Source: Aquimarina rhabdastrellae (GTDB taxonomy: Bacteria; Bacteroidota; Bacteroidia; Flavobacteriales; Flavobacteriaceae). From it: a stretch of 64,000 bases of DNA. The stretch lies in the NCBI GenBank assembly GCA_947387485.1, contig CANDNT010000018.1, positions 1-64,000 of the forward strand. The letters run 5' to 3'. The notes under the pieces were generated by a model, which worked only from the letters and a program-made list of their open reading frames with translations, was not told the DNA's origin and did not search any database. Of the stretch, positions 5,322-18,262 are shown piece by piece. A program made the translations under genes and the position numbers. The number at the start of each line of letters is the position of its first letter. The first letter of the stretch is position 1.

Positions 5322-5827
5322 TGAATTTAGACATAGCACTTAATCTTGGTAGGTTTATTACATTACTACTGATTCAAGTAATGGTATTAAATCACGTTGA
5401 TTTTCTGGGGTATCTTGACCCCTATCTTTATATTATATTTATTCTACTTTTCCCTTTAAACGCAAACAGAAGTTTATTTTTATTACTTAGTTTTATATAC
5501 GGACTTATTTTAGATATGTTTGGAGATTCTGGTGGTATCCATGCAGCTGCATGTGTTACTATTGCTTTTGCTAGGCCTTTAATTCTAAGATCAACTTTTG
5601 GTGTTAGTTATGAGTTTCAAACAATCAAATTAGCTAATGTAAGTTTTCTTCAACAATTAGTGTATGTATCTCTTATGGTTATCATACATCATTTTGTTCT
5701 TTTTTCTTTAGAGATATTTAACCTATCACATATACTATTATTTGCTAAAAAAGCGTTATTCACTAGCGTTTTCACTATAATACTTAGTATGCTCGTTTTA
5801 GTTTTATTTCGAAGAAAAAATTCATGA
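5321..5827 (+). CDS. mreD: Rod shape-determining protein MreD
   Basis: A 168-residue polytopic inner-membrane protein with five or six hydrophobic segments. Family identity is supported mainly by the hydropathy pattern, its size and its position between mreC and mrdA; MreD sequences are poorly conserved. It overlaps mreC by 1 bp and the following PBP2 gene by 4 bp (ATGA), so translation of the three is probably coupled. Confidence 0.88.
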   Translation: MNLDIALNLGRFITLLLIQVMVLNHVDFLGYLDPYLYIIFILLFPLNANRSLFLLLSFIYGLILDMFGDSGGIHAAACVTIAFARPLILRSTFGVSYEFQTIKLANVSFLQQLVYVSLMVIIHHFVLFSLEIFNLSHILLFAKKALFTSVFTIILSMLVLVLFRRKNS

Positions 5828-7686
5828 GGAAATTATTGCTTTATCTTATTATTGTTGTCATTGGAATTGTATTCATTTCTAGGTTATTCTACCTTCAAAT
5901 TTATAATACTTCTTATGCTGCTTTGTCTGAAGATAATGCGGTAAAAGTTATAAATGACTATCCCGAACGCGGAGCTATATATGATCGCAATGGAACTTTA
6001 TTAGTTTCTAATCAGCCTTCGTATGATGTGATGGCTATTCCTAGAGAATTAAAACCCTTTGATACCTTAGAGTTTTGTTCTTTATTAAACATTTCTAAAG
6101 AACGTTTAATCAAACAAATCGATAAAGCTAAACGTTATTCTTATAGAGTTGGTTCTGTAATTGTTCCTCAACTTACTAAAGATGAGTATGCGTATCTGCA
6201 AGAAAAAATGCACAAGTTCAATGGTTTTTATATCCAGAAAAGATCATTACGTGACTATCATACTGATCATGGTGCTAATGTATTAGGGTTTATAGGCGAA
6301 GTAAACAATGCTGCTATAAAAAAAGATAATTATTATATCTCTGGAGATTTAATGGGTATACGTGGTGTTGAAAAACAATACGAAAAAATACTACGTGGTA
6401 ATAAAGGTGTTAAACGTATTTTACAGGATCGATTCAATCGAGCTATAGGACCTTATAAAGGTGGTACTATGGATACACTTCCTGTTCCTGGAAAAGATTT
6501 AACACTCACCATAGATAACGAACTCCAAAAATATGGAGAACAGCTGATGGTAAACAAAAGAGGAGGTATTGTTGTTATCGAACCTGCTACAGGAGAAATT
6601 CTAGCTTTAATTACAGCTCCTCATTATAAACCAGATTTATTGGTAGGAAGAAAACGTTCTCCCAATTTTACCAAACTGTATAACGATACTATCGCAAAAC
6701 CTTTATTTGATCGCGGAGTTCAAGGATCTTATCCTCCAGGTTCTCCTTTTAAGACATTAACTGCTTTAATTGGCTTACAAGAAGGTGTTATTGATGATCG
6801 TTCGACTTTATTTTGTAGTGGTGCCTATAAATATGGTAAAAAAGCTAAAATGGGTTGTCACTGTGGTACAGGAAGACATAATCTTACTAGTGCCGTTGCT
6901 AAATCTTGTAACACTTATTTTGCAACTACATATCGCGGTTTTATAGAAAAATATGACTCTCCTAAAGATGGTATTGATAATTGGAAAGCTCATGCCGCAA
7001 GTTTTGGACTTGGTAACTTCTTGAACAATGACCTTTCTTCTGGAAGTAAGGGCTTAATTCCTGATGGAGCATTCTACGATCGTTATTATCCCGGAAATCG
7101 TTGGAGAGCTACAACTACACTTTCTAATGCCATAGGACAAGGAGAAGTAAGCACTACTCCTATTCAATTAGCAAATATGACTGCAGCCATAGCTAATAGA
7201 GGTTTCTTTTTTACACCTCACATAGTAAAAGCTATTGATAGTATATCTCTTAAAGATGAAAATTATACTGTTCCTAAATTAACTACCATAGACAAAAAAC
7301 ATTTTGCTCCAGTAATTGAAGGAATGCATAGAGTATACACTCATGGTACAGCAAGAGCTTTACAAGTACCCGGTATTGAGATCTGCGGAAAAACTGGTAC
7401 TTCAGAAAATTATACTAAGATCAATGGCGAAAGAACTCAACTTACAGATCATTCTATCTTTACAGCATTTGCACCTAAAGAGAATCCTAAAATTGCAATA
7501 GCTGTTTTTATCGAAAATGGTTATTGGGGATCAAGATCAGCTGGGCGAATTGCTAGTTTAATGATTGAAAAACATATCAAAGGTCATATTACTCGTACTG
7601 ATTTAGAAAAATGGGTTTTGGAACACAGTCTTGAAGAAGAATATGCAAAACCGTTAAGTGGCGAACCTTTTGAAATTAATAAATAA
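5824..7686 (+). CDS. mrdA: Penicillin-binding protein 2 (elongation transpeptidase)
   Basis: A class B PBP that crosslinks peptidoglycan during lateral wall growth, with RodA as its glycosyltransferase partner. The 620-residue protein has an N-terminal membrane anchor (about residues 4-22), a dimerisation/pedestal domain (NDYPERGAIYDRNG onward) and a transpeptidase domain. The active-site motifs are complete: S307-x-x-K310 in PPGSPFKT, S361-C-N363, and K523-T-G in CGKTGTSEN. It overlaps mreD by 4 bp and is followed 7 bp later by rodA. Confidence 0.96.
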   Translation: MRKLLLYLIIVVIGIVFISRLFYLQIYNTSYAALSEDNAVKVINDYPERGAIYDRNGTLLVSNQPSYDVMAIPRELKPFDTLEFCSLLNISKERLIKQIDKAKRYSYRVGSVIVPQLTKDEYAYLQEKMHKFNGFYIQKRSLRDYHTDHGANVLGFIGEVNNAAIKKDNYYISGDLMGIRGVEKQYEKILRGNKGVKRILQDRFNRAIGPYKGGTMDTLPVPGKDLTLTIDNELQKYGEQLMVNKRGGIVVIEPATGEILALITAPHYKPDLLVGRKRSPNFTKLYNDTIAKPLFDRGVQGSYPPGSPFKTLTALIGLQEGVIDDRSTLFCSGAYKYGKKAKMGCHCGTGRHNLTSAVAKSCNTYFATTYRGFIEKYDSPKDGIDNWKAHAASFGLGNFLNNDLSSGSKGLIPDGAFYDRYYPGNRWRATTTLSNAIGQGEVSTTPIQLANMTAAIANRGFFFTPHIVKAIDSISLKDENYTVPKLTTIDKKHFAPVIEGMHRVYTHGTARALQVPGIEICGKTGTSENYTKINGERTQLTDHSIFTAFAPKENPKIAIAVFIENGYWGSRSAGRIASLMIEKHIKGHITRTDLEKWVLEHSLEEEYAKPLSGEPFEINK

Positions 7687-7692
7687 TTCTAG

Positions 7693-8946
7693 ATGGCAAA
7701 ATCAAGTGTAGCTGCAATAGACTGGCTAACCGTTTTAATTTTTATTTTACTAATTGGTTTTGGATGGGGAAATATCTATTCTGCTTCTTTCAATGAAGAC
7801 ACTATTTCTTTTACAGATCTAAGTCTTTCTTATGTAAAACAAGGATTATGGATTGGACTAAGTCTACTTTTAGTTATTATCATACTCTCTATTGAAGCTA
7901 AGTTTTATGAACGCTTTTCTAGTGTCATTTATTTAGCCTCTTTGCTTTCCTTATTAGGTTTATTTGTTTTAGGTAAAAATATTTCTGGAGCTACTTCTTG
8001 GTATGTATTTGGCCCTGCAAGTATTCAACCATCAGAATTTGCTAAAGCAGCTACGGCGCTCGCTTTGGCTAAATACCTTAGCGACTTACATACTAATATC
8101 AAATACTTTAAACATCAACTTAATGCATTCTTGATCATAATTTTACCTGCATTAATTATCATTCCGCAACCAGATCCTGGAAGTGCCCTGGTATATGCAG
8201 CTTTCTTTTTCCCTTTATATAGAGAGGGGTTACCCGCTTTATATTTAATTATAGGGATATCCACTGTGGTTTTATTTGTCCTCACATTGCTATTTGGACC
8301 AACTTGGGTTGTTGCTATTAGTGTATTTTTAATTTTTGGGTTATTGTTTATGAATCGTAATCAAAAGCCCAAATACTCAAGATATTTCTTGACTGCTGCT
8401 ACTATAACTTTATTTTGCTTTTCTGTTAATTATATTTTCAATAATATTTTTGAACAACGACATAGAGATCGTTTTAATATCGTTTTAGGAAAAGAAATTG
8501 ATACTAAAGGTATTGGTTACAACACTAACCAAAGCGAAATTGCAATTGGTAATGGTAGTTGGTTTGGAAAAGGCTGGAAAGAAGGAACACAAACCAAAGG
8601 TGACTTTGTACCTGCTCAGGATACCGATTATATCTTTAGTACTGTAGGTGAAGAATGGGGGTTTGTAGGAGCAACTTTTATCATCCTTCTTTTTGTTATC
8701 TTATTACTACGTCTATTACACCTTGCAGAAAGGCAAAAAAATCAATTTAGCCGTGTTTATGGCTACAGTGTCGTAGGTATTTTATTTATTCATTTTACTG
8801 TAAATATAGGTATGGTTACAGGTTTATTACCTACTGTAGGAATACCGTTACCTTTCTTTAGTTATGGTGGTTCTAGTTTATGGGGTTTTACAATACTCCT
8901 ATTTATTTTTATAAAATTAGATGCGAACAGAGTGAATGAATGGTAA
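7693..8946 (+). CDS. rodA: SEDS peptidoglycan glycosyltransferase RodA
   Basis: A SEDS-family polytopic membrane protein of 417 residues that polymerises lipid II in the elongasome. About ten hydrophobic segments are visible. Family landmarks include SIQPSEFAKAATALALAKYL, the conserved acidic loop PQPDPGSALV, and the C-terminal GLLPTVGIPLPFFSYGGSS. Gene order after mrdA supports RodA rather than FtsW. It ends only 10 bp from the convergent nuclease gene, and no terminator hairpin is visible between them. Confidence 0.95.
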   Translation: MAKSSVAAIDWLTVLIFILLIGFGWGNIYSASFNEDTISFTDLSLSYVKQGLWIGLSLLLVIIILSIEAKFYERFSSVIYLASLLSLLGLFVLGKNISGATSWYVFGPASIQPSEFAKAATALALAKYLSDLHTNIKYFKHQLNAFLIIILPALIIIPQPDPGSALVYAAFFFPLYREGLPALYLIIGISTVVLFVLTLLFGPTWVVAISVFLIFGLLFMNRNQKPKYSRYFLTAATITLFCFSVNYIFNNIFEQRHRDRFNIVLGKEIDTKGIGYNTNQSEIAIGNGSWFGKGWKEGTQTKGDFVPAQDTDYIFSTVGEEWGFVGATFIILLFVILLLRLLHLAERQKNQFSRVYGYSVVGILFIHFTVNIGMVTGLLPTVGIPLPFFSYGGSSLWGFTILLFIFIKLDANRVNEW

Positions 8947-8956
8947 ATACTCTATT

Positions 8957-9751
8957 CTAAAACTTCCAAACGCTGGGATATACTTGATTTTCTAATCGAG
9001 TTTCTATTTCATCATCAAGTTTAGGGTAGAAATCTATTCCTGTTAACTTTTCTATTTGATCAACTGGTACAATAAAATCTTTTAGCGGTTTGTTTGAATC
9101 TTTATGTGGCATCAAAAAACCTATCATTTTTGGATTTGTTGAATTGTTATCCAAAATTACTTTATAAAAATATTCCGGAACAGCCACGTTTTCTTCTCCT
9201 ATATTTTTTAGATTTTTATGTAATACTCCTCCCGTAACAACATATACTCCATTATATCGCTTTGCCCAATATCTCACTTTCTTTTCTAACTTATTCCATA
9301 TTCCGCTATTAAATGCATGTTCTTGTGGACTAATATTAGAGGTTAAAAAAGTTTCTTCAAAGGCATCATAAGAAAATCTTCTATCTCCTGCTGGACATAA
9401 ATGCCCCTTATCATATCCAGATTTTTTATAATTTCTCCAATGAGCAGAAGATGACTTTACCTTTTTATCTTCTTGAAAATATGGCCTTTTAAATTCATTC
9501 TTGGATAAATGGTCAGCTTTAAGTTCATAAGCTACCCATTCTGCCTGTTCATAAGCTTCGGCATAAGATAACGTATAGTTATCATGTGTAATAATACTAC
9601 CCGTAGTAGATGTAGGTAAATAAAAGAAATTTTGTGTTTTTACAACTTCATCTATTTGAGGAGTCTTATCTATATACTCTTCTGCGTATTTAAAGATAGC
9701 TGCGACAATAAGAATAAGAATTGGATAAATTAATCTACGGTTAATTTTCAT
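8957..9751 (-). CDS. DNA/RNA non-specific endonuclease, membrane-anchored or secreted
   Basis: A 264-residue beta-beta-alpha metal nuclease of the NucA/NUC1 type that cleaves DNA and RNA without sequence specificity. The core motif is YDKGHLCPAGDRR, with the general-base His at residue 117 (family motif DRGH, here DKGH). A downstream Asn-rich Mg-binding helix SNISPQEHAFNSGIWNKLE follows. Residues 5-20 form a hydrophobic signal or anchor, so it probably acts in the periplasm or outside the cell. An upstream in-frame ATG at 9781 is rejected because a -7 promoter element (9770-9777) lies between it and the start at 9751. Nutrient scavenging from nucleic acids is a likely role. Confidence 0.9.
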   Translation of the reverse strand: MKINRRLIYPILILIVAAIFKYAEEYIDKTPQIDEVVKTQNFFYLPTSTTGSIITHDNYTLSYAEAYEQAEWVAYELKADHLSKNEFKRPYFQEDKKVKSSSAHWRNYKKSGYDKGHLCPAGDRRFSYDAFEETFLTSNISPQEHAFNSGIWNKLEKKVRYWAKRYNGVYVVTGGVLHKNLKNIGEENVAVPEYFYKVILDNNSTNPKMIGFLMPHKDSNKPLKDFIVPVDQIEKLTGIDFYPKLDDEIETRLENQVYPSVWKF

Positions 9752-9769
9752 GGTATAGGCTATTTGATG

Positions 9770-9777
9770 CAAAAATA
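9770..9777 (-). promoter_or_regulatory. Putative -7 element for the nuclease gene
   Basis: On the minus strand this reads TATTTTTG, an exact match to TAnnTTTG, about 18 bp before the chosen start at 9751. It decides the start, because the longer reading frame would begin inside the promoter. Confidence 0.6.
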
Positions 9778-10015
9778 ACAAAACTCTCTATCTTCCTATA
9801 CCCTCTTTTTATTTCAACATTTACAAAATACGGTTTAAGCGTATTTATTTTATCAATTTACCTCATTACACCGTAACTTATTTATATCTAATTTTAATAA
9901 CGTTATTTTTTTTAGAATTCAATCATCGTTTCTCCCCCGAATCTAGATATGAAATTCATCCTATGCTAATAGTATTTAATTCAAATTAAACCTATTAATA
10001 ATTCAGATATATTAC

Positions 10016-11614
10016 ATGAAAAACAACATTGAAAGTATTGTTGAAAATGTGTTAATTCATAATGGAATTAACGATTACGACAAGCAAGATTTAGAATTAC
10101 AATTACAAATCCATCCCAATTACCCTAGTTTCAATGCTATTACCGATACATTAGATTATTTTAATATAGATAATATTGCTGTCGAGGTTCCAAAAGAAGC
10201 TTTGGATCAACTACCTGATAGTTATATCTCTTTGGTAACCTCTAGTGAGGATGATCAAGAAATTGTTTCTGTATTAAGAAAAAAGGATACTATTCACATT
10301 AAATATCCTGATCAAAAATCTGAAAAAATTTCTATCTCTGAATTTGAAAAAAGATGGATTCCTAAAGTTATTGCAGTAGAACATAATGGCTCTTCTGATT
10401 TTACTTCTTCTAGATCTCAATTAAACACACTTTTGATAGCTGGTTTTGCTTTAAGCATAATAGCTCTGACTTTCTTTAAGAATTGGGATATTCAAGCTAT
10501 TAGCTTTTTAGGTCTTTCTATTATAGGTGGAATTTTTGGTTATTTCGCCGTAAGGGAAAGCTTAGGTTTACAATCACAAACTATGCATCAATTTTGTACT
10601 ACAGTAGGAAATACAAACTGTGGTGATGTAATCAATAGTGCCAATGGTAAGTTATTTAACAATTTCGGGATTGCAGATGCTAGTTTTGTTTACTTTACTG
10701 GTTTAGCAATTTATCAGTTCTTTTTTGGATTCACTTCTGTTTTAGTTTTCCCTTCTTTATTAAGTATTCCTATTATTTTTTATGCATTATATACTCAAGC
10801 ATTTAAAATCAAAAAATGGTGTGCTATTTGTCTTGCAATTAGCGCCATAACGATTACAATGTCAACTATTGCTATTATTTCATTACCTATAACTTTTGAT
10901 CTTTTAATTACAGCTCAATTTGTAGCCTTATTGAGTTTAATTACGCTAGGTTATATTCAGGTTAAAGAAAAATTAGTTGAAAATAAAAAGCAAAAAAACG
11001 AGAACATCACCCTTAATCGCTTTAAAAGAGATGGTCAAATTTTTAATCATTTATTTTCACAATCAGATCGTATTGAAAATATAAATAGCATTCCTAATGA
11101 GATTATTATCGGTAATCCTAATGCTAATTTTAAAATTATAAGTGTAACCAATCCTATGTGCGGGTATTGTAAAGATGCTTTTAAAGCATATGCTAGAGTT
11201 GCAAAAAGCTTAGGCGATTCTGTACAAATTGCAATTAGACTCAGTGTACAACATGACAATTTAGATCATCCTGCCACGCAGATCAGTCTTCGTTTAATCG
11301 AGATTTATCATCAACAAGGGCAACAAGGTTTTATTAACGCTTATAGCGAATGGTTTGACGATCGTACTCCTACTACATGGATTCAAAAATATGGTAAACA
11401 TAGTACTGACGAAAAATTCACTACTGTATTGCAAAAACAAGCTGAATGGACTCAAGAAAACAATCTTTTCTACACACCTGCATCATTAATTAATGGTCAG
11501 TTTTATCCTAAGAAATATAGTTATGATGAGTTCTATCACTTTGTAAGTATTTTACATGATAGTTATCAATCTGAAGCTTATACTGGAACTCCCGCTAGTT
11601 TAGAAATCGTATAA
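10016..11614 (+). CDS. Pseudo-C39 / VKOR / DsbA-like fusion protein (disulfide-forming)
   Basis: The 532-residue protein has three parts. Residues 1-122 resemble a peptidase C39 domain (IHPNYPSFNAITDTLDYF; SISEFEKRWIPKVIAVE), but the catalytic Cys is absent and the usual His strand reads EIVSVL, so it is probably a non-catalytic C39-like domain. Residues about 137-315 form a VKOR-type membrane domain with loop cysteines C194 and C202 and the quinone-proximal pair C269-A-I-C272. Residues about 360-532 are a DsbA-like thioredoxin domain with C382-G-Y-C385 and a likely cis-Pro loop TPAS (P488). Known VKOR-thioredoxin fusions pass electrons from substrate thiols to quinone, making disulfides outside the cytoplasm. 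The gene ends 28 bp before a row of Cys-rich double-glycine-leader peptide genes. I infer that these are its substrates and that the C39-like part binds their leaders. Confidence 0.9.
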   Translation: MKNNIESIVENVLIHNGINDYDKQDLELQLQIHPNYPSFNAITDTLDYFNIDNIAVEVPKEALDQLPDSYISLVTSSEDDQEIVSVLRKKDTIHIKYPDQKSEKISISEFEKRWIPKVIAVEHNGSSDFTSSRSQLNTLLIAGFALSIIALTFFKNWDIQAISFLGLSIIGGIFGYFAVRESLGLQSQTMHQFCTTVGNTNCGDVINSANGKLFNNFGIADASFVYFTGLAIYQFFFGFTSVLVFPSLLSIPIIFYALYTQAFKIKKWCAICLAISAITITMSTIAIISLPITFDLLITAQFVALLSLITLGYIQVKEKLVENKKQKNENITLNRFKRDGQIFNHLFSQSDRIENINSIPNEIIIGNPNANFKIISVTNPMCGYCKDAFKAYARVAKSLGDSVQIAIRLSVQHDNLDHPATQISLRLIEIYHQQGQQGFINAYSEWFDDRTPTTWIQKYGKHSTDEKFTTVLQKQAEWTQENNLFYTPASLINGQFYPKKYSYDEFYHFVSILHDSYQSEAYTGTPASLEIV

Positions 11615-11642
11615 TTTAATCTCCATTAATAAAATCAAAATC

Positions 11643-11801
11643 ATGCAAAAACAAATTAAAACTATAAAAGGCATCTCTATAATAGAGAAAATCGACCAAC
11701 AATATATAATAGGTAGTACCCGTCATACTTTGGAAGCTTTATGCAATACAGATGATGATTGTATAAGTCCTGGAGGGTGTATTGATGGAGCTTGCTTTTA
11801 A
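11643..11801 (+). CDS. Cys-rich leader peptide 1 (52 aa)
   Basis: A 52-residue precursor-like peptide. The leader (MQKQIKTIKGISIIEK...) ends in IIGS, not GG, so processing may occur after G24. The core contains four cysteines at C34, C40, C46 and C51 with framework C-x5-C-x5-C-x4-C, including CNTDDDC and a terminal GACF. The same framework and both motifs occur in the next gene, so the two are paralogues. It starts 28 bp after the VKOR-fusion gene and follows an A-rich segment ending AAAATCAAAATC directly before the ATG, which recurs before several sister genes. Two intramolecular disulfides are the natural inference. I recognise no characterised peptide. Confidence 0.8.
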   Translation: MQKQIKTIKGISIIEKIDQQYIIGSTRHTLEALCNTDDDCISPGGCIDGACF

Positions 11802-11819
11802 TATAAGTTTTTAACTCAC

Positions 11820-12060
11820 AAATCATTTTATTCTAATCATAAAAAATCAAAATCATGCTAAAGCAAATTCAATTTATTCAAGGGGTAACTTTAATTAAAA
11901 AAACTTCTCAACAACAAATTTCAGGTGGTCAAGGACCAAGAGTAGGTTGCAATACAGACGATGATTGTTATGGAGATGCTGTATGTTTAGGAGGTGCTTG
12001 CTTTTTATAACCTCTCTCTCTTGTAAATCATTTTACTCTAATCATAAAAATCAAAATCAT
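11820..12060 (+). repeat. Direct repeats of the precursor 5' flank
   Basis: A 37-bp segment at 11820-11856, running up to and into the start codon of peptide 2, recurs as a 36-bp segment at 12025-12060 in front of the decayed third copy. The two differ by one T/C change and one A in a poly-A run. This shows that a unit containing 5' flank, leader and core was tandemly duplicated. Confidence 0.8.
11855..12010 (+). CDS. Cys-rich double-glycine peptide 2 (51 aa)
   Basis: A 51-residue precursor-like peptide. The leader MLKQIQFIQGVTLIKK ends in the double-glycine motif QQQISGG (G24-G25). The 26-residue core has cysteines C32, C38, C44 and C49 in the framework C-x5-C-x5-C-x4-C, with CNTDDDC and GGACFL. 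It is a clear paralogue of peptide 1 and, in its leader, of peptide 7. It lies in the same direction as the VKOR-fusion gene. The function of the mature peptide (toxin, signal or other) cannot be read from sequence. Confidence 0.85.
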   Translation: MLKQIQFIQGVTLIKKTSQQQISGGQGPRVGCNTDDDCYGDAVCLGGACFL

Positions 12061-12224
12061 ATTAATACAAGTTTCTAGACAAGGAAAGACATTAACTAAA
12101 CTGTTTCTACAAACTTTCGATGGTGAGTTGAATACTTGTATGCACAAAAGGTAAAATCGTATGTTCAAAAGGAGAAGAATATAGATAGTCCGGTATTTAT
12201 CCTGAACAACCTTATACTTGTTAA
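12059..12224 (+). pseudogene. Decayed Cys-rich precursor gene
   Basis: The 36-bp flank that precedes the ATG of peptide 2 is repeated here, but the start codon has become ATA (12059). The frame then reads a leader-like sequence (ILIQVSRQGKTLTKLF, compare MLKQIQFIQGVTLIKK). It continues to a Cys and stops at a TAA soon after CMHKR. Removing one A from the AAAA run before GG near 12148 restores a Cys-containing frame ending ...YPEQPYTC at 12224, although one in-frame TAG remains. Lost start, frameshift and stop together indicate a dead paralogue. Confidence 0.75.
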
Positions 12225-12280
12225 TTGTTATAGGTCTAAATCTTGTTAAATATTAATCTTTAAAAACAGCTTATATCATT

Positions 12281-12487
12281 ATGAAAGAAATTAGAAAAAT
12301 TAAAACTGCTTCTTTATTAACTAAAAAGGAGCAACAATCTATTCAAGGTGGTATAGGGATCCTAGATACACGAGAAGCTTGTGCTTGTATTGTATTAGGA
12401 CCTAGAGGGTATCTCGAAATTGTACCTGTAGACTGTGATAGTTTATGTCCAGATGGATCTCAATCCATTTCTGGTCTTGCATATTAA
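12281..12487 (+). CDS. Cys-rich double-glycine peptide 4 (68 aa)
   Basis: A 68-residue precursor. The leader MKEIRKIKTASLLTKKEQQS ends IQGG at residues 21-24. The core of 44 residues carries CAC and CDSLC, giving the framework C-x-C-x15-C-x3-C, the same type as peptide 9 (C-x-C-x13-C-x3-C) despite different leaders. The leader and the preceding 30 bp (TTAAAAACAGCTTATATCAT region) are nearly identical to those of the next gene, while the cores are unrelated. This indicates leader duplication with core replacement or rapid core divergence. Confidence 0.88.
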   Translation: MKEIRKIKTASLLTKKEQQSIQGGIGILDTREACACIVLGPRGYLEIVPVDCDSLCPDGSQSISGLAY

Positions 12488-12516
12488 TATTAATTTTTAA
12501 AACAGCTTATATCATT

Positions 12517-12708
12517 ATGAAAGAAATCAAAAAAATCAAAGATGCTTCTTTATTAACAAAAAAAGAACAACAATCTATCCAAGGAGGAAACCTTCAATTC
12601 CCTATTCCTTGCAGATCAAGAAGGGATTGTTTTCTAGCTATAGGGGAACTTGATTGGGCATGTGTATCTCAACCACATTCACCATTCAGTTATTGTCAAC
12701 CACTATAA
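12517..12708 (+). CDS. Cys-rich double-glycine peptide 5 (63 aa)
   Basis: A 63-residue precursor with leader MKEIKKIKDASLLTKKEQQS ending IQGG. The core begins NLQFPIP and contains CRSRRDC, then two more cysteines, framework C-x5-C-x10-C-x10-C. A longer in-frame start at 12445 exists, but it would overlap the previous gene and place a spurious sequence before the leader. The start at 12517 aligns exactly with that of peptide 4, including the conserved 5' flank. The core is a clear paralogue of peptide 6. Confidence 0.9.
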   Translation: MKEIKKIKDASLLTKKEQQSIQGGNLQFPIPCRSRRDCFLAIGELDWACVSQPHSPFSYCQPL

Positions 12709-12742
12709 TTTAATCAAACATTAATCTATAAAGATGCTTATT

Positions 12743-12925
12743 ATGTCTAAAGACCTTTTAAAAACAGCTACTCCATTAACTAAATCTGAGCAGAAAAAAA
12801 TAAATGGAGGTCAATATACTCCTATTTTATGTAGAACTCGTAGAGATTGTTTTGATGCTACGGGGGAATATGCTTGGGCATGTTCTGCTAGTCCAGGATT
12901 TTATGGATACTGCATCCCCTTATAA
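12743..12925 (+). CDS. Cys-rich double-glycine peptide 6 (60 aa)
   Basis: A 60-residue precursor. The leader MSKDLLKTATPLTKSEQKK ends INGG. The core contains CRTRRDC and two later cysteines, framework C-x5-C-x10-C-x9-C, closely matching peptide 5 (RRDCF, WAC, YC and a final PL shared). An in-frame ATG three codons upstream (12734) is possible, but the 12743 ATG aligns with the starts of peptides 4 and 5. Peptides 5 and 6 are the most similar core pair in the cluster together with 1 and 2. Confidence 0.9.
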   Translation: MSKDLLKTATPLTKSEQKKINGGQYTPILCRTRRDCFDATGEYAWACSASPGFYGYCIPL

Positions 12926-12952
12926 ATTAATTAATCTCAAAAATCAAACATC

Positions 12953-13123
12953 ATGCTTAAAAACATTCTAAACACCAACAAGGTAACAGTTTTACAGAAA
13001 TCACAACAAAAAAATATCAATGGAGGAGGAGGTTTAAATTCATTTTGCCACAACGATAGTGAGTGTGATCGCGGATTAGTCTGTGCTGGTTGCTTTTGCC
13101 GTCCAATAGGTGGACCAGTATAA
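12953..13123 (+). CDS. Cys-rich double-glycine peptide 7 (56 aa)
   Basis: A 56-residue precursor. The leader MLKNILNTNKVTVLQKSQQK ends INGG and matches the peptide 2 leader (MLK, VT, SQQ, GG). The core has five cysteines (C32, C38, C44, C47, C49) with CHNDSEC aligning to CNTDDDC of peptides 1 and 2, then CAGCFC. The odd cysteine count is unique in the cluster and would leave one thiol free for dimerisation, metal binding or attachment. The A-rich 5' flank ending CAAACATC before the ATG resembles those of peptides 1 and 2. Confidence 0.85.
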   Translation: MLKNILNTNKVTVLQKSQQKNINGGGGLNSFCHNDSECDRGLVCAGCFCRPIGGPV

Positions 13124-13150
13124 TAAAATAAAGTTAACTTTTTCATAACG

Positions 13151-13182
13151 ATCCAAAATCACTATTACTAGTGATTTTGGAT
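13151..13182 (+). terminator. Perfect hairpin inside the precursor cluster
   Basis: A 14-bp perfect stem (ATCCAAAATCACTA at 13151-13164, TTAC loop, complement at 13169-13182) is followed by TACTTTT. It lies between peptides 7 and 8. It could be a weak intrinsic terminator or attenuator lowering expression of peptides 8 and 9, or a processing site stabilising the upstream transcript. Confidence 0.65.
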
Positions 13183-13211
13183 TACTTTTAAATCATCATA
13201 AATATATAATC

Positions 13212-13430
13212 ATGAGTCAATTAAAAAAAATCAAAGACATTGTTATTTTAAACAAAAACGAACAAAAAAATATCAATGGAGCTATGTTATCACCTTTTTG
13301 TGCAGGAACAGGAACAGGAGGAGTTTCTTCACCTGGGTATTCACAAGCTTGTTTAGGTCGTACAGGAAAATGTATGATTAACGGATATTTAGCTGCTTGT
13401 AATCCTAACGGTTCTTTCTGGTTTTACTAA
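13212..13430 (+). CDS. Cys-rich leader peptide 8 (72 aa)
   Basis: A 72-residue precursor with leader MSQLKKIKDIVILNKNEQKN ending INGA, so the second glycine is replaced by alanine (GA-type sites are tolerated by C39 peptidases). The core is the longest in the cluster (about 48 residues), rich in Gly and Ser, with four cysteines in framework C-x16-C-x6-C-x8-C and an aromatic end GSFWFY. It lies after the internal hairpin and may be expressed at a different level from peptides 1-7. Confidence 0.85.
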   Translation: MSQLKKIKDIVILNKNEQKNINGAMLSPFCAGTGTGGVSSPGYSQACLGRTGKCMINGYLAACNPNGSFWFY

Positions 13431-13463
13431 TCAATATTAATCATTAAATAAATTACTCTAATC

Positions 13464-13622
13464 ATGTCAAAATTATCAAACATCAAAGGAATTAAAACCT
13501 TAGATAAAAGCTCTCAAAAAAATATTGCTGGAGGAGGTCCTCAAGGAGAATTCTCTTGCTATTGTAATGGGACTTACGTTGGAGAAGTTAGCAGCATAGC
13601 TGAATGCTGGAATGCTTGCTAA
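13464..13622 (+). CDS. Cys-rich double-glycine peptide 9 (52 aa)
   Basis: A 52-residue precursor with leader MSKLSNIKGIKTLDKSSQKN ending IAGG. The core (GPQGEFSCYC...CWNAC) has four cysteines at C32, C34, C48 and C52, framework C-x-C-x13-C-x3-C, and the last residue is Cys. Peptide 4 has the same arrangement (C-x-C-x15-C-x3-C). The stop codon at 13620-13622 is followed by a strong hairpin with a T run, so this is the last gene of the cluster. Confidence 0.85.
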   Translation: MSKLSNIKGIKTLDKSSQKNIAGGGPQGEFSCYCNGTYVGEVSSIAECWNAC

Positions 13623-13647
13623 TTAAATTCAGTATAAGATTATATTT

Positions 13648-13686
13648 GAAATTCCATTAATTCTAGAGTTAATGGAATTTCTTTTT
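13648..13686. terminator. Terminator of the peptide cluster
   Basis: A perfect 13-bp stem (GAAATTCCATTAA at 13648-13660, complement at 13669-13681) with an 8-nt loop is followed by TTTTT at 13682-13686. It sits between the convergent peptide cluster and the OppC-like gene and probably ends transcripts from the plus strand. Confidence 0.85.
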
Positions 13687-14797
13687 ACGTTTTTATATCT
13701 AAAGCATCTCTTAATGCATTCCCTATTAACATAAATGCCATCACTAAACTCATTATTGCCATCCCTGGTATAATTGCTAGATAGGCTTTTCCTAAAATAA
13801 TATATGAATAGTGATCTTTTATCATTGCACCCCAACTAGGCATAGGTGGTTGTGCTCCTATTCCTAAAAAGCTCAATCCACTTTCTATCAAAATTGCTCC
13901 AGCAAAATTAGCTGCTGAAATTACAATTACTGGCGCAAAACTATTAGGCAATATATGCTTCAGTATAATTCTAAAATTGGTATATCCTAATGCTTTTGCC
14001 GCAGTTACATATTGCTGCTGTTTTACGCTCATTACCTGCCCTCTAACTATTCTAGCCACTTCTACCCACATTGTTAATCCTACCGCTATAAAAACTTGCC
14101 AAAAGCCTTTTCCTAAAGCTAATGTAATTGCTATAACTAACAATAATGTTGGAATCGACCATGTCACATTAATTAACCACATTATAGCTGCGTCTAATCG
14201 CCCTCCATAAAAACCAGCTAAAGCTCCTAAAGGAATTCCTATCAATAAAGATATAAGTACTGCCACAAAACCTATAGCAAACGAAATTCTCGTTCCTATA
14301 ATCATTCTACTCAATAGGTCTCTACCGTATTTATCTGTACCTAAAACAAATGTTTTAGTCTTTATATATTTTTTTTCAATTTGTTCTAGCGAATATTCTT
14401 TAGGAAATTTACTTTTAGATATCCATTTGGTCATCCCATCTTCTTCCCCTTCTCTATAAGGAGTGATCTCGATACCGTCATTTTTAATACTATAACTAGT
14501 AATAGGAAGTTCTGTAGCTGTATTTTCTTTTCCAAAAAACAATCGATTTAATGATGATTGCTCTGCTTTATGTCTAGATGGTAGAGTAAGCATCTGAACT
14601 GTAAATCCAGGTGCTTTAGAATGAATAGATAAATGCATTTGATTTGCATTTACAGAATTATCTGGAGCTAGTATATATCCAAACAGCGCTATGACTCCAC
14701 ATGCTATAACAAACCAAAAACTCAAAACGCCCCAAAAATTCTTTTTGAATTTTTGGAGCGCTAATTTATTTAGTGATTTAGAAGATTTCTCTTGCAC
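13685..14797 (-). CDS. OppC-like ABC transporter permease
   Basis: A 370-residue inner-membrane permease of the oligopeptide/dipeptide importer type. One helix (about residues 22-45) is followed by an insertion of about 120 mostly polar residues, then the BPD_transp_1 domain with five helices. The family signature is present: LGTDKYGRDLLSRMIIGTR and the EAA loop (AAKALGYTNFRIILKHILPN). The N-terminal extracytoplasmic insertion is longer than in E. coli OppC. No OppB partner, ATPase or binding protein is adjacent. It begins 1 bp after the stop of the tail-specific protease gene, so the two are co-transcribed. Confidence 0.9.
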   Translation of the reverse strand: MQEKSSKSLNKLALQKFKKNFWGVLSFWFVIACGVIALFGYILAPDNSVNANQMHLSIHSKAPGFTVQMLTLPSRHKAEQSSLNRLFFGKENTATELPITSYSIKNDGIEITPYREGEEDGMTKWISKSKFPKEYSLEQIEKKYIKTKTFVLGTDKYGRDLLSRMIIGTRISFAIGFVAVLISLLIGIPLGALAGFYGGRLDAAIMWLINVTWSIPTLLLVIAITLALGKGFWQVFIAVGLTMWVEVARIVRGQVMSVKQQQYVTAAKALGYTNFRIILKHILPNSFAPVIVISAANFAGAILIESGLSFLGIGAQPPMPSWGAMIKDHYSYIILGKAYLAIIPGMAIMSLVMAFMLIGNALRDALDIKT

Positions 14798-14798
14798 T

Positions 14799-16931
14799 TT
14801 AGTTCTTTATAGTCAACGAATTTGTTTTTGCGTTACGAAGGTTATTAAGCTTCATATCTTCTAATACATTAAGAGCTTCTTCCATATAAACATCTTTGCT
14901 TAAGCTTTTATGCCATCTCTTACGCTTCTCTCCTAAAATCGTATCATTTTTAATCAAATCTAACTCGTATGGTAAAGATTTATACTTTAAATCTGTTTTA
15001 TACTCAGAAATAGCATCAAATCGCTTCGCTTCTTCTTCACCATCTTTGATATTTTTACTGTACTTCTTAAAGTTAAGAGAATATTCATTCACATCTCTTT
15101 TATCTTTTACCCATTTTGCATTTTCTCCTATCAATTGCAATTGAGTATTTTTTGACATACGTTCTTTACTATTTGCTATAGTTTTATCAAAATCAATATA
15201 TCCATCCCAAATCTCATAATCAGCTGCTTTTATTTTATCCCATGGTAATGGATTTTCTTGATCTTTCTCTCCTACATCAATATAACTGTAACGGTCTTTT
15301 ACTACTACATCACTTTTTACTCCTTCTAATTGAGTAGATCCGCCATTTACACGGTAAAACTTTTGTGTAGTTAATTTTAATGCTCCTAAATCACCTTCAT
15401 CATTATTACGTACCCATCTGTTTAGGTCCATTACATTTTGAACAGTTCCTTTTCCATAGGTTTGTTTGCTTCCTATAATAATAGCTCTTTTATAATCTTG
15501 CATTGCCGCTGCCAATATTTCTGAAGCAGATGCAGACAATTCATTTACTAATAAAACTAATGGGCCATCCCATAAAATATTATGATCTCTATCTGTTAAT
15601 ATCTCTGGAGATTCTCCTCTTCCTTTAACCTGTACTATAGGCCCTTTTTTAATAAATAATCCAGCTATATCAACTACTGTTTGTAATGATCCTCCTCCAT
15701 TATTTCTAAGATCAATTACTAATCCTTGCATGTCTTGTTTTTTCAGCCTTATGATCTCTTTTTTGATATCACTAGCTGCATTGCGTTGATTATAATCTTG
15801 AAGATTAAAATAGAATTTTGGTAAGTTAATTACTCCATATGTTCTTTCGTTTTTCTTTACAACAGAAGATTTTGCATATGTTTCTTCTAATTCTACAACA
15901 TCTCTTACTATAGAAATATCTTCTATAGTACCGTCTACTTTCTTTATTGTTAATGTTACTGTTGTTCCTTTTGGTCCTTTAATCAAACTTACGGCATCAT
16001 CTAGTCTCATTCCTACTACACTTACTGGTTCTTCTTCATCTTCTTGTTTTACTTTAAGAATCAAATCACCAACCTCTACTTCTTCACCTCTCCAAGCTGG
16101 TCCACCTGATATAATCTCAATAATTTTAACATTATTATTCTTCTTTTGTAAACGAGCTCCAATTCCTTCTAATTTTCCTGACATTGCTATGTCAAAACGA
16201 TCTTTATCTTGTGGTGCAAAATAATATGTATGTGGATCAAACTCCTCTACTATAGCATTTACATAAATTGCGAACCAGTCTTTACGCTGTAAATCATCAG
16301 AAAATTCAAAATACTCTTTTAACGTATTCTTAGTATCTTCTCTAGCTTCTTTTTCTAATTCTTTTAATGATTTTGATTCTTTCTTCTCTTTATCTTCTTC
16401 TTGTTCTTCAACTTTATCATAATAATTAGAAAGCGTATTAAACTTTAATTGTTTTCTCCATCTGTTACGCATTTCTTTTTTGCTAGAAACATACTTTAGT
16501 TTATCATAATCTGTATTGATATTTTCTTCTTTATCATAATTAAAAGGAGTATCCAAAATTTCTTTATACAATACCCTAGATTCTGCCATACGCTCTTGCA
16601 AACGATCATACGTAAGATTAAAGAATGTCAAATCTTTATTTATAATCTGATCATCAATCAATGTTTCATAAGCTTTAAAATCTTCTATATCACTCGCGTA
16701 AAAATAACGTTTTAACGGATCTAAAGCATCTACATAGTCTTTATAAACTTCTTTTGAGAAATCATCATTAACGTCCTTTGCATCATAATGTAACTTATTG
16801 AGAACATAGCTAATTAAATCAATCAACAGTTTATCTTTATCTGTATCTCCTTCAAACTTCTTTGAAGTGAAACTACAAGATGCACCTGCTAAAATAACAG
16901 CCAACATCACTACTAAAAAACTCTTCTTCAT
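14799..16931 (-). CDS. prc: Tail-specific (carboxy-terminal processing) protease, S41
   Basis: A 710-residue Prc/Tsp-type periplasmic serine protease that degrades proteins from their C-termini. It has an N-terminal lipoprotein-like signal (Cys near residue 19 in LAGASCSF), a helical N-terminal domain, a PDZ domain (about 240-340, GIGARLQKKNNNVKIIEII), the S41 catalytic domain with the Ser in NELSASASE and the Lys in QTYGKGTVQ, and a long C-terminal extension (DUF3340 type). Length matches Prc rather than shorter CtpA enzymes. It is directly upstream of the OppC-like permease; a joint role in periplasmic peptide turnover and uptake is plausible but inferred. Confidence 0.94.
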   Translation of the reverse strand: MKKSFLVVMLAVILAGASCSFTSKKFEGDTDKDKLLIDLISYVLNKLHYDAKDVNDDFSKEVYKDYVDALDPLKRYFYASDIEDFKAYETLIDDQIINKDLTFFNLTYDRLQERMAESRVLYKEILDTPFNYDKEENINTDYDKLKYVSSKKEMRNRWRKQLKFNTLSNYYDKVEEQEEDKEKKESKSLKELEKEAREDTKNTLKEYFEFSDDLQRKDWFAIYVNAIVEEFDPHTYYFAPQDKDRFDIAMSGKLEGIGARLQKKNNNVKIIEIISGGPAWRGEEVEVGDLILKVKQEDEEEPVSVVGMRLDDAVSLIKGPKGTTVTLTIKKVDGTIEDISIVRDVVELEETYAKSSVVKKNERTYGVINLPKFYFNLQDYNQRNAASDIKKEIIRLKKQDMQGLVIDLRNNGGGSLQTVVDIAGLFIKKGPIVQVKGRGESPEILTDRDHNILWDGPLVLLVNELSASASEILAAAMQDYKRAIIIGSKQTYGKGTVQNVMDLNRWVRNNDEGDLGALKLTTQKFYRVNGGSTQLEGVKSDVVVKDRYSYIDVGEKDQENPLPWDKIKAADYEIWDGYIDFDKTIANSKERMSKNTQLQLIGENAKWVKDKRDVNEYSLNFKKYSKNIKDGEEEAKRFDAISEYKTDLKYKSLPYELDLIKNDTILGEKRKRWHKSLSKDVYMEEALNVLEDMKLNNLRNAKTNSLTIKN

Positions 16932-17152
16932 ATATGTATTTTATATTCTTAATTGGTTCAGGCAAATTACATTAAAAACTATGCCAAGAATAAGTAATAA
17001 TACTAAATTTTTCTTAAATGAACTAATGGGTTATCTGCAATACTGTTAATTATTTCTAATCATCACATATCTGCCTTTACCTAATTCATTATATACTAGG
17101 ATATCTATAGTTTTCTCTACTTTTTTTATTTCACAAGCTATACTTCTAATTC

Positions 17153-17190
17153 CTGTAAAAAACGTAGTTTTACAGCTATAAACTTATAGC
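17153..17190 (+). promoter_or_regulatory. Two inverted repeats immediately upstream of surE
   Basis: CTGTAAAA (17153-17160) pairs with TTTTACAG (17168-17175). An adjacent palindrome GCTATAA-AC-TTATAGC covers 17175-17190. The second ends 2 bp before the surE ATG. They could be operator half-sites or mRNA hairpins in the ribosome landing area. Confidence 0.45.
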
Positions 17191-17192
17191 TT

Positions 17193-17969
17193 ATGAACTC
17201 TGAAAGACCTCTTATTTTAGTCACTAATGATGACGGAATTACAGCTCCAGGTATTCGCGCATTAATTGAAGTCATGAACGAAATCGGTGATGTATATGTA
17301 GTTGCGCCTGATAGTCCTCAAAGCGCCATGGGACATGCTATAACAATTAATAATACGTTATACTGTGATAAAATCATTATTGATGCTGATGCGCCTCAAA
17401 AAGAATTCAGTTGTTCTGGAACTCCAGTAGATTGTGTAAAAATAGCTACTCATGAGATTTTAACTCGCAAACCTGATTTGTGTGTAAGCGGTATTAACCA
17501 TGGTTCAAATTCTGCTATAAATGTAATTTATTCTGGAACTATGAGTGCTGCCGTAGAAGCTGGTATTGAAGGAATTCCTGCTATTGGCTTTTCTCTACTA
17601 GATTTCTCTATGAATGCAAATTTTGAACCTACAAAACCTTTTATTAAACGTATTGTTGCTAATGTACTTCAAAATGGTTTACCTAAAGGTGTTGTGCTCA
17701 ATGTAAATTTCCCTAAACTTGAAGAAGATCAAATTAAAGGAATGAAAATATGTAGACAAGCAAATGCACATTGGGAAGAAGAGTTTGATAAGCGAACTAA
17801 TCCTATGGGTCGTGATTATTATTGGTTATCAGGAAAGTTTGTGAATTCGGATAAAGGAGAAGATACCGATGAATGGGCTTTGGCTAATGGCTATGTTTCT
17901 ATTGTACCCACTCAATTTGATCTAACCGCCCATCATTATATTCAAGAATTAAATTCTTGGGAATTATAA
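17193..17969 (+). CDS. surE: 5'/3'-nucleotidase SurE
   Basis: A stationary-phase survival phosphatase that removes phosphate from nucleoside monophosphates. The 258-residue sequence shows the N-terminal metal-binding motif LVTNDDGITAPGIRAL, the APDSPQSAMGHA segment and the conserved SGINHGSN loop. Length is normal. It is divergent from prc and followed closely by a small membrane gene and lpxB on the same strand. Confidence 0.96.
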   Translation: MNSERPLILVTNDDGITAPGIRALIEVMNEIGDVYVVAPDSPQSAMGHAITINNTLYCDKIIIDADAPQKEFSCSGTPVDCVKIATHEILTRKPDLCVSGINHGSNSAINVIYSGTMSAAVEAGIEGIPAIGFSLLDFSMNANFEPTKPFIKRIVANVLQNGLPKGVVLNVNFPKLEEDQIKGMKICRQANAHWEEEFDKRTNPMGRDYYWLSGKFVNSDKGEDTDEWALANGYVSIVPTQFDLTAHHYIQELNSWEL

Positions 17970-17980
17970 CTTATTATTTT

Positions 17981-18262
17981 ATGAAGGTTAAAGAAATTTT
18001 AATTGGTTTTACAGTTGGTCTTATTGCAAACGCTTTGGGAATCGCTCTTTATATTTTAATGTTTTCTAAAATAAGTATTAAAGAAACACTTAAAGCTGCA
18101 ATGGAACAAGGTTTTTTAGGAAGTCTCATCGCGCTAGGTGCTATCTTAAACTTGGTTGCTTTTTTCTTATTTTTAAAACAGAATAAAACCTTTCGCGCCC
18201 GTGGGGTGTTACTTGCTACTGTTATAGCTGCCGTAGTTATTGCATTAAGCAAAATGTATTAA
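17981..18262 (+). CDS. Small three-helix membrane protein, unknown function
   Basis: A 93-residue hydrophobic protein with three predicted membrane segments (about residues 6-27, 45-62 and 70-90) and a basic loop KQNKTFRARG before the last. I do not recognise a named family. An earlier in-frame TTG at 17957 would overlap the end of surE; the ATG at 17981 (MKVKEIL) is preferred. The position between surE and lpxB suggests co-transcription, but no function follows from that. Confidence 0.75.
   Translation: MKVKEILIGFTVGLIANALGIALYILMFSKISIKETLKAAMEQGFLGSLIALGAILNLVAFFLFLKQNKTFRARGVLLATVIAAVVIALSKMY

What the first reader, a model, noticed from the sequence alone, without database searches (positions are those of the whole stretch)
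10016..13686. Cys-rich double-glycine peptide array beside a C39-like/VKOR/DsbA fusion
One 532-residue disulfide-forming membrane protein is followed at once by eight intact and one decayed gene for small Cys-rich peptides with double-glycine-type leaders, all on one strand and closed by a strong terminator. Seven cores have four cysteines and one has five. Tight linkage suggests a dedicated oxidative-folding system for a family of secreted peptides. VKOR-thioredoxin fusions and GG leaders are known separately. A large array of varied cores served by one fused oxidase is, to my knowledge, poorly described.
Basis: partly seen in the sequence, partly recalled or inferred. Interest (0 to 1): 0.88.

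Follow-up and report, generated by a model that had tools for sequence, protein, structure and literature searches.

The report
One oxidase for many disulfide peptides
A marine bacterium carries a row of eight small cysteine-rich secreted-peptide genes beside a membrane enzyme that very probably makes their disulfide bonds; the pair recurs in related bacteria and looks like an undescribed way to build a large, fast-changing set of knotted peptides.

Summary
In detail: a 532-residue C39-like/VKOR/DsbA fusion (10016-11614) is followed by eight intact double-glycine-type peptide genes (Cys 4,4,4,4,4,5,4,4), one relic and a terminator-like hairpin. It is one corner of a larger system. The genome holds 49 such peptides at 26 places (45 with an even Cys count), three fusions, one intact C39 exporter and no DsbB match. 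Of 80 related fusion loci, 60 carry such peptides (up to 18); 305 lie on the fusion's strand, 2 on the other. Of the 20 empty loci, 15 genomes were searched whole and all 15 carry leader peptides elsewhere. Leaders are conserved (69% identity within a locus), cores are not (23%). All 83 fusions scored keep six redox cysteines; none keeps the C39 catalytic cysteine. Unexpectedly, positive charges place every active site on the cytoplasmic side, opposite to 14 of 16 VKORs without the C39-like domain. Best reading: a leader-reading, cytoplasm-facing oxidase makes the disulfides before a C39 ABC exporter cleaves and secretes the peptides, probably as bacteroidetocin-like weapons. Orientation, leader reading and activity are inferred. 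New variant of a known kind.

The parts
10016..11614 (+). C39-like/VKOR/DsbA-like fusion oxidase, 532 aa; its only six cysteines are C194, C202, C269, C272, C382, C385
10073..10384 (+). N-terminal C39-like domain (residues 20-123), catalytic Cys absent; invariant residues around an HPxYPS motif; no hydrophobic segment (so no signal peptide seen) before the first membrane segment at about residue 134
   Evidence: ComA peptidase domain 3k8u among the structure matches
10505..10873 (+). VKOR domain (residues 164-286), loop pair C194/C202 and C269-x-x-C272
11093..11542 (+). DsbA-like thioredoxin domain (residues 360-509), C382-G-Y-C385
11643..11801 (+). precursor peptide 1, leader ends GS, 4 Cys (C-x5-C-x5-C-xn-C framework)
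11855..12010 (+). precursor peptide 2, leader ends GG, 4 Cys, same framework; Pfam Squash inhibitor E 0.0099, below its cut-off
12025..12160 (+). relic of a ninth peptide gene: repeated upstream block without a start codon
12281..12487 (+). precursor peptide 3, 4 Cys; its core family has 15 members in 15 loci
12517..12708 (+). precursor peptide 4, 4 Cys; probable start 12517, inside a longer listed frame 12445-12708
12743..12925 (+). precursor peptide 5, 4 Cys, paralogue of peptide 4; probable start 12743, listed frame from 12734
12953..13123 (+). precursor peptide 6, 5 Cys; falls in a 39-member cluster found in 19 loci
13150..13183 (+). internal terminator-like hairpin, 15 pairs
13212..13430 (+). 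precursor peptide 7, leader ends GA, 4 Cys, no relative among the 334 peptides compared
13464..13622 (+). precursor peptide 8, leader ends GG, 4 Cys, no relative among the 334 peptides compared
13648..13681 (+). terminator-like hairpin closing the array, 15 pairs

Best explanation
The locus belongs to a genome-wide system that makes a large, fast-changing repertoire of disulfide-bonded secreted peptides. Each precursor has a conserved leader and a hypervariable Cys-rich core. The membrane fusion protein would bind the leader with its C39-like domain (catalytically dead), oxidise the core with its DsbA-like CGYC domain, and pass the electrons through the two VKOR cysteine pairs to quinone. Charge distribution and the lack of a signal peptide put all these parts on the cytoplasmic face, so disulfides would be made on the leader-bearing precursor. 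A separate C39 ABC exporter with an HlyD partner, encoded once in this genome beside a sister fusion, then cuts the leader and exports the folded core. The mature peptides most likely act on other bacteria in the manner of bacteroidetocins. Shown by sequence: anatomy, linkage, Cys parity, redox cysteines, dead C39 site, exporter in trans. Inferred: leader binding, cytoplasmic orientation (about 0.65), quinone as acceptor, antagonism (about 0.5).
For: Linkage: 305 leader peptides on the fusion strand against 2 on the other in 80 loci; over 148 other Flavobacteriaceae genomes, each of a different genus, leader peptides occur in 15 of 22 with the fusion and 3 of 126 without (Fisher 9e-13); in 14 of the 16 genomes with both (own included) a peptide lies within 5 kb of a fusion (read). 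Disulfides: even Cys count in 291 of 309 Cys-bearing peptides and 92 of 101 families, 45 of 49 in this genome. Oxidase: six redox Cys in 83 of 83 fusions; C39 Cys in 0 of 83, His in 2, Asp in 7, against 27 of 27 for each in the exporters. Orientation: the side holding all active parts is richer in K/R in 83 of 83 (16.2 against 1.0) and in 12 of 12 of a phylum-wide set, while 14 of 16 VKORs without the C39-like domain show the opposite (Fisher 6e-6). Exporter: one intact C39 ABC gene in this genome (domains); a C39 match in a frame of 700 aa or more in 31 of 31 related genomes; exporter and HlyD both in the same stretch as fusion and peptides in 18 of 22 Tenacibaculum loci (3 of the other 4 have the exporter without HlyD, and all 4 may be cut short by the stretch held). 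Sole source: no DsbB match here, and the only VKOR matches are the three fusions.
Against: No experiment, transcript or peptide is available. 20 of 80 fusions have no local peptide on their strand. In the family sample 7 of 22 fusion genomes other than this one have no leader match at E 1e-4 and 3 genomes have leaders without the fusion at E 1e-30. The positive-inside rule is statistical; 2 of 16 control VKORs break it, several controls are near copies of each other, and the side-B loops are very short and so offer few positions. The cytoplasm is reducing, and the DsbA-like part resembles periplasmic proteins. Odd-Cys cores exist (18 of 322 at the 80 loci, one of them a misplaced cut, and window peptide 6), and 13 of the 322 have no Cys. 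C39-like leader binding is analogy only.
Confidence: 0.6

Rival explanations
1. Same substrates and enzyme, but canonical orientation: C39-like domain, VKOR active site and DsbA-like domain all lie in the periplasm, and the exported peptide is oxidised there after leader removal.
For: Known VKOR-thioredoxin fusions and DsbA proteins are periplasmic or lumenal (recalled); the closest folds are ScsC/DsbA proteins, several of them titled periplasmic; 2 of 16 control VKORs also break the charge rule.
Against: Side-A charge counts and the N-terminal domain of about 134 residues with no hydrophobic segment before it; a leader-binding-type domain would have no leader to meet there; an ABC/HlyD conduit usually bypasses the periplasm (recalled).
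Confidence: 0.25
2. The peptides are intercellular signals (ComC/BlpC-like pheromones) rather than weapons.
For: Double-glycine leaders also serve pheromones in Gram-positives (recalled); some cores are strongly conserved, e.g. one family with 17 members in 17 loci (core pN/pS 0.24 over 44 equal-length pairs).
Against: 49 peptides in one genome, 289 distinct cores among 305, and no receptor or kinase gene recognised beside the array (by eye).
Confidence: 0.15
3. The peptides are inhibitors or toxins aimed at eukaryotic prey or hosts (knottin-like protease inhibitors or channel blockers).
For: C-C-CC-C-C framework in 49 of the 333 peptides counted; weak matches of a 6-Cys model from a related locus to MCoTI knottins (best E 2.8, 4 of the 6 matches listed) and of peptide 2 to the Squash inhibitor family (E 0.0099, below cut-off); cores mostly not cationic (mean net charge -1.1).
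Against: All structural matches are non-significant; fusions of this kind are also found in Parabacteroides and in isolates from soil, spring water, a pond and rice grains.
Confidence: 0.2
4. The fusion is a general disulfide or metal-handling housekeeping enzyme and the peptides are incidental neighbours or metal-binding peptides.
For: 20 of 80 fusions lack local peptides; paired Cys could also bind metal.
Against: Strand bias 305 to 2, genome-level co-occurrence, and a candidate leader/Cys frame near 12 of 15 distant C39-like fusions against 1 of 16 other VKORs, that one an antisense frame. Four of the 15 had longer flanks; without them it is 8 of 11 against 1 of 16, and a few of the candidate frames are marginal.
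Confidence: 0.07

Closest known systems
Bacteroidetocins (Coyne et al. 2019, PMC6671954)
   Same: Double-glycine leader, 4 Cys in the mature peptide, adjacent thiol oxidoreductase whose deletion weakens the toxin, adjacent C39-type ABC transporter, Bacteroidota host, no obvious immunity gene (section 7 and passages read); target BamA (PMC8546649, passages).
   Different: There one peptide per four-gene locus, with oxidoreductase and a five-membrane-helix protein as separate genes. Here an array of eight, 49 in the genome, a three-domain fusion, and the exporter on another contig. Sequence relationship to bacteroidetocins A and B was not tested.
Pediocin PA-1 with PedC, and other class II bacteriocins with a thioredoxin-like accessory protein (PMC5465099, passages)
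   Same: ABC transporter plus an accessory protein associated with disulfide formation; in that paper PedC raised pediocin output but was not essential in E. coli.
   Different: No VKOR, no C39-like domain on the accessory protein, a single peptide with an immunity gene (VKOR and C39-like points recalled).
VKOR-thioredoxin fusion of PDB 4nv6 (Synechococcus, recalled) and the Aeropyrum VKOR that works in two compartments (Hibender 2017, seen only as a reference title)
   Same: VKOR four-cysteine relay joined to a thioredoxin-fold partner (4nv6); a natural VKOR acting also in the cytoplasm (title).
   Different: No C39-like domain and no peptide substrate array (recalled); 4nv6 has K/R in the loops that are poor in K/R here (alignment, E 0.036, by eye).
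Prochlorosins (recalled, not searched)
   Same: Conserved leader, hypervariable cores, one enzyme serving many scattered precursors in trans.
   Different: Lanthionine chemistry by LanM, not disulfides.

Membership tests
VKOR family (PF07884) | family match over cut-off and four redox cysteines | tested here: met
   45.7 bits against 27.5; C194, C202, C269, C272 in 83 of 83 fusions
Canonical periplasm-facing VKOR/DsbA pair | positive charges on the side opposite the active site | tested here: not met
   K+R on the active-site side in 83 of 83 and 12 of 12 fusions; opposite in 14 of 16 other VKORs
C39 peptidase | catalytic cysteine | tested here: not met
   0 of 83 fusions (3 gapped there), 27 of 27 exporters
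Bacteroidetocin-type system | double-glycine leader, 4-Cys core | tested here: met
   7 of 8 window peptides have 4 Cys, 1 has 5; leaders end GG (6), GS (1), GA (1); published leader is 15 aa, here 23-25 aa
Bacteroidetocin-type system | thiol oxidoreductase gene adjacent | tested here: met
Bacteroidetocin-type system | C39 ABC transporter in the same gene cluster | tested here: not met
   none among the frames listed around the array; single copy on contig C4
Bacteroidetocin-type system | sequence relationship to bacteroidetocins A and B | not tested
   their sequences were not fetched
Bacteroidetocin-type system | kills Bacteroidales through BamA | not testable with these tools
   needs bench work
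Class IIa (pediocin-like) bacteriocin | YGNGVXC motif in the core | tested here: not met
   absent from all eight cores as printed (read by eye; motif as given in PMC6671954)
Class I lanthipeptide | leader family match and Lan enzymes nearby | tested here: not met
   best leader match 14.4 bits against cut-off 22; no Lan enzyme recognised among the frames listed for 5000-18000 (by eye)
Microcin V-like type 1 export | C39 ABC transporter plus HlyD adaptor | tested here: met
   adjacent genes on contig C4 of the same genome; TolC partner not tested

The most novel reading that the evidence does not exclude
A peptide-maturation chemistry not described in the papers searched: a leader-guided, cytoplasm-facing quinone-linked disulfide oxidase, in which a dead C39 peptidase domain reads the same leader that the exporter's live C39 domain later cuts. 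One enzyme thereby folds dozens of unrelated cores in the reducing cytoplasm, giving Bacteroidota a disulfide counterpart of the prochlorosin library.
Probability: 0.5. Interest if true: 0.88.

Novelty: new variant of a known kind. Interest (0 to 1): 0.78.

Why it matters
If right, it gives a gene-level handle (one fusion gene) to find disulfide-rich peptides by the hundred in marine, soil and gut Bacteroidota; in the four plasmid records inspected the peptides are called hypothetical proteins or, in Spirosoma, are not in the gene table shown (which is known to be incomplete). It makes two questions directly testable: how a Gram-negative cell oxidises peptides that leave by a one-step export route, and whether a dead peptidase domain can serve as a general leader reader. 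A membrane oxidase that folds many unrelated disulfide frameworks would also be useful for producing such peptides in laboratory strains.

Tried and rejected
Family libraries (Pfam; NCBIfam) name none of the eight window peptides: all their matches lie under the cut-offs, as do those of nine peptides from related loci. Tandem-repeat search of the array found none. The sigma-70 scan found fewer promoter-like sites than shuffles (16 against 23.3), and a Bacteroidota-type promoter pattern (recalled) was not found in the stretches scanned, so no promoter is claimed. Ten proteins of more than 900 aa first scored as exporters start alike and read as UvrA by eye; they and three short partial hits are left out, leaving 27 of 40 hits as exporters. 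The peptide structure model (35 aa from locus L082, pLDDT 79) gave no significant fold match. The idea of ordinary cationic antimicrobial peptides was set aside: mean net charge -1.1, positive in 25% of 333. Papers: ten searches showed no description of a C39-like/VKOR/DsbA fusion with peptide arrays; several of them listed only 12-20 of up to 639 papers, and the library holds open-licence papers only, so this is not proof of absence. A 2025 preview of a class II bacteriocin atlas for the gut (PMC12648078, listing only) may overlap. A 2026 preprint on a disulfide-bearing RiPP made in the membrane (PMC13252029, abstract and passages) is a different system: the words VKOR and C39 do not occur in its text.
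Full report
WHAT IS THERE. The window lies in a 4.99 Mb, 59-contig genome whose nearest named relatives at this locus are Aquimarina (best fusion identity 70%). Upstream are cell-shape genes (mreC, mreD, PBP2, rodA by appearance) and a non-specific endonuclease on the other strand; downstream on the other strand is a gene that reads as an ABC permease (by eye). Between them, on the + strand, are the fusion gene and eight peptide genes. The three fusion domains all pass Pfam cut-offs. An AlphaFold2 model on 45 sequences has mean pLDDT 85.7 and pTM 0.58. Foldseek matches it to DsbA-like proteins, to PCAT1 and to the ComA peptidase domain (the listing does not say which part of the model is matched). 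A profile search finds DsbA-like chains and the VKOR/thioredoxin structure 4nv6 (E 0.0013).

IS IT MORE THAN CHANCE. The strict rule (ATG start, leader motif, at least 3 Cys) finds the eight and nothing else in 64 kb, and nothing in 20 arbitrarily chosen stretches totalling 400 kb of the same genome, where four leader-like frames appear, none with 3 Cys. The rule was drawn from the window's own leaders, so its reach outside this family of leaders is not claimed.

RELATED LOCI. A scan of the genome collection (84,980 species) found 206 relatives, of which the best 80 were kept. In their 1.31 Mb the strict rule finds 305 peptides on the fusion's strand and 2 on the other (both in L049); 60 of 80 loci have at least one (25 of 42 Aquimarina-type loci, 35 of 38 others), 14 have eight or more, the maximum is 18; 289 of the 305 cores are distinct. 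In 18 of 22 Tenacibaculum loci the C39 ABC exporter and HlyD adaptor are both in the same stretch; of the other four, three have the exporter only, in whole or part, and one (L081) ends just past the fusion. Eighteen of the 20 loci without peptides were looked at again with a looser rule and no convincing missed peptide appeared. Fifteen of the 17 Aquimarina-type genomes without local peptides were searched whole with the leader profile; all 15 carry matches elsewhere, 3 to 62 each at E up to 1, the best in each at most 5.5e-6. Not every one of those matches need be a Cys peptide; their cores were not read.

WHOLE-GENOME VIEW. The leader profile A3 (built in part from this genome's own leaders) finds 49 peptides in the window's genome, E up to 0.13, at 26 places on 12 contigs (my grouping). 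Cys counts are 2 (2 peptides), 4 (19), 5 (4), 6 (22), 8 (2): 45 of 49 even. Two of the 49 (on C9 and C17) end in AA or AG rather than GG or alike and are weaker. In the two outlying stretches read the peptides stand between housekeeping or biosynthetic genes with no obvious partner. There are three fusions, each with at least one peptide nearby (on C4 a DUF6734 gene lies between), a single intact C39 ABC exporter with HlyD, and no DsbB match. All 31 related genomes searched have a C39 match in a frame of 700 aa or more (the ABC domain itself was not checked there). So oxidase and exporter must act in trans on most peptides if they act on them at all.

CO-OCCURRENCE. In 149 Flavobacteriaceae genomes, each of a different genus, the fusion (E up to 1e-30) is in 23 and leader peptides (E up to 1e-4) in 19, both in 16. 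Without the window's own genome: 15 of 22 against 3 of 126, Fisher P 9e-13. In 14 of the 16 a peptide lies within 5 kb of a fusion; G047 and G118 are the misses (read). Genomes were treated as independent, which overstates significance somewhat.

DISULFIDES. With no Cys filter, 322 leader peptides on the fusion's strand at the 80 loci have 0 (13), 2 (4), 4 (133), 5 (17), 6 (139), 7 (1) or 8 (15) cysteines, none 1 or 3. One of the 5-Cys cases (L068:15160) is a misplaced cut. Clustering of 334 peptides (window and sister loci included) gives 103 families, with an even modal count in 94, or 92 of the 101 that have cysteine (binomial P 2e-18). There are 25 cysteine patterns, led by C-C-C-C (104 of 333 peptides) and C-C-CC-C-C (49). 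The window's odd peptide 6 has look-alikes with 5 and 7 Cys in L055 and L014, so the odd cysteine may be used rather than an error.

DIVERSIFICATION. Among 1455 same-locus pairs, leaders average 69% identity and cores 22.5%; leaders are the more alike in 1447. In the window the figures are 42.5% and 26.2%, leaders the more alike in 24 of 28 pairs. Pooled pN/pS is 0.32 for cores and 0.22 for leaders between loci (239 pairs), 0.54 and 0.17 within loci (23 pairs). These pairs were chosen for equal length and at least 40% core identity, which lowers the core figures. The genes are under coding constraint, and cores are freer after local duplication.

THE ENZYME. All 83 fusions (80 loci, two sister loci, window) keep C194, C202, C269, C272, C382, C385, and these are the window protein's only cysteines. 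None has Cys at the C39 catalytic position (3 are gapped there), 2 keep the His and 7 the Asp; 27 of 27 exporters keep all three. Instead the domain has invariant residues around an HPxYPS motif (45 sequences).

ORIENTATION. The model has an extra helix (135-154) before the VKOR helices. This puts the C39-like domain, both VKOR cysteine loops and the DsbA-like domain on one side. Counting K+R near the membrane, that side has a mean of 16.2 and the other 1.0, the same direction in 83 of 83; with VKOR loops alone 6.6 against 1.0, again 83 of 83. The stretches counted on the active side are about three times as long. As a control I took VKORs from 118 phylum-wide genomes (26 positive). Of 29 loci fetched, 2 were dropped for misread frames. 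The 11 with a C39-like domain, plus the window, show the same bias (12 of 12); of 16 without it, 14 show the opposite and 2 do not (L200, L202) (Fisher 6e-6); some of the 16 are close relatives of each other. The 4nv6 alignment also shows its K/R in the loops that are poor here (by eye). With no hydrophobic segment before residue 134, the cytoplasmic orientation is the better reading. A natural VKOR working in two compartments is reported for Aeropyrum (Hibender 2017, title in a reference list), and inverted VKOR or DsbB is used in making disulfides in the E. coli cytoplasm (PMC5471842, one passage).

BEYOND THE FAMILY. Relatives on plasmids were found in eight records of five genera at 19-27% identity, seven of them covering most of the query. 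The four records inspected (Parabacteroides distasonis, Aureibacter, Spirosoma, Emticicia) each have one or two 6-Cys double-glycine peptides near the fusion and a peptidase-domain ABC transporter downstream. The gene tables call the peptides hypothetical proteins; the Spirosoma one is not listed, and those tables are incomplete. In a set of 15 (these four and the 11) 12 C39-like fusions have a candidate frame nearby, against 1 of 16 other VKORs, an antisense frame. Flanks were 6 kb for the four and 1.5 kb for the rest; without the four it is 8 of 11, and a few candidates are marginal.

WHAT IT PROBABLY DOES. The nearest characterised system is the bacteroidetocins, where a thiol oxidoreductase gene, a 4-Cys double-glycine peptide and a C39-type transporter make a toxin acting on BamA, with no obvious immunity gene (PMC6671954, PMC8546649). 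I take the peptides here to be antagonistic for the same reasons (host phylum, parts, lack of an evident receptor gene), with about even confidence. The mostly uncharged or acidic cores (mean net charge -1.1) argue for binding a protein target rather than for charge-driven membrane lysis.

CHANGES ON CHECKING. The dead-C39 count rested on a truncated tally; completes it and bears it out.

Noticed in passing
L008:5280-6554 (contig C4 of the same genome): A DUF6734 protein (319.6 bits) sits between the lone 4-Cys peptide and the sister fusion; glycosyltransferases also lie between fusion and exporter in the Parabacteroides and Spirosoma plasmid loci, and the Parabacteroides locus has a LanC-like gene too. 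Some loci may make further modified disulfide peptides.
   Followed up: partly
L009:8877-11630 and loci such as L057, L076, L077, L078, L086, L088: A TPR-CHAT protein lies directly upstream of the fusion in L009 and several other loci; 13 of the 80 loci have a match within the fetched stretch. A possible protease partner.
   Followed up: no
L025, L026, L032, L034 around 10067-10800: Runs of double-glycine leader peptides with no cysteine and a conserved PLTNEPV-like core, 13 copies in 4 loci, among the Cys-peptide genes.
   Followed up: no
17 Aquimarina-type loci, e.g. L011, L012, L016, L020, L021, L024, downstream of the fusion: One peptide family (CCYHNGTTWVQGPPCF type) changes little across 17 loci (core pN/pS 0.24 over 44 equal-length pairs), unlike its hypervariable neighbours, and none of the window's eight belongs to it.
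   Followed up: partly
window 13150-13183: An internal terminator-like hairpin separates peptides 1-6 from 7-8, so the array may be two transcription units.
   Followed up: no
G091: A genome with two strong leader peptides (E 6e-10) but no fusion at E 1e-30; it may use a different or more distant oxidase.
   Followed up: no
L049:9711-10134: The only two minus-strand hits of the strict rule: peptides with a different, lysine-rich leader next to a fusion without same-strand peptides; an exporter lies 4 kb further on.
   Followed up: no
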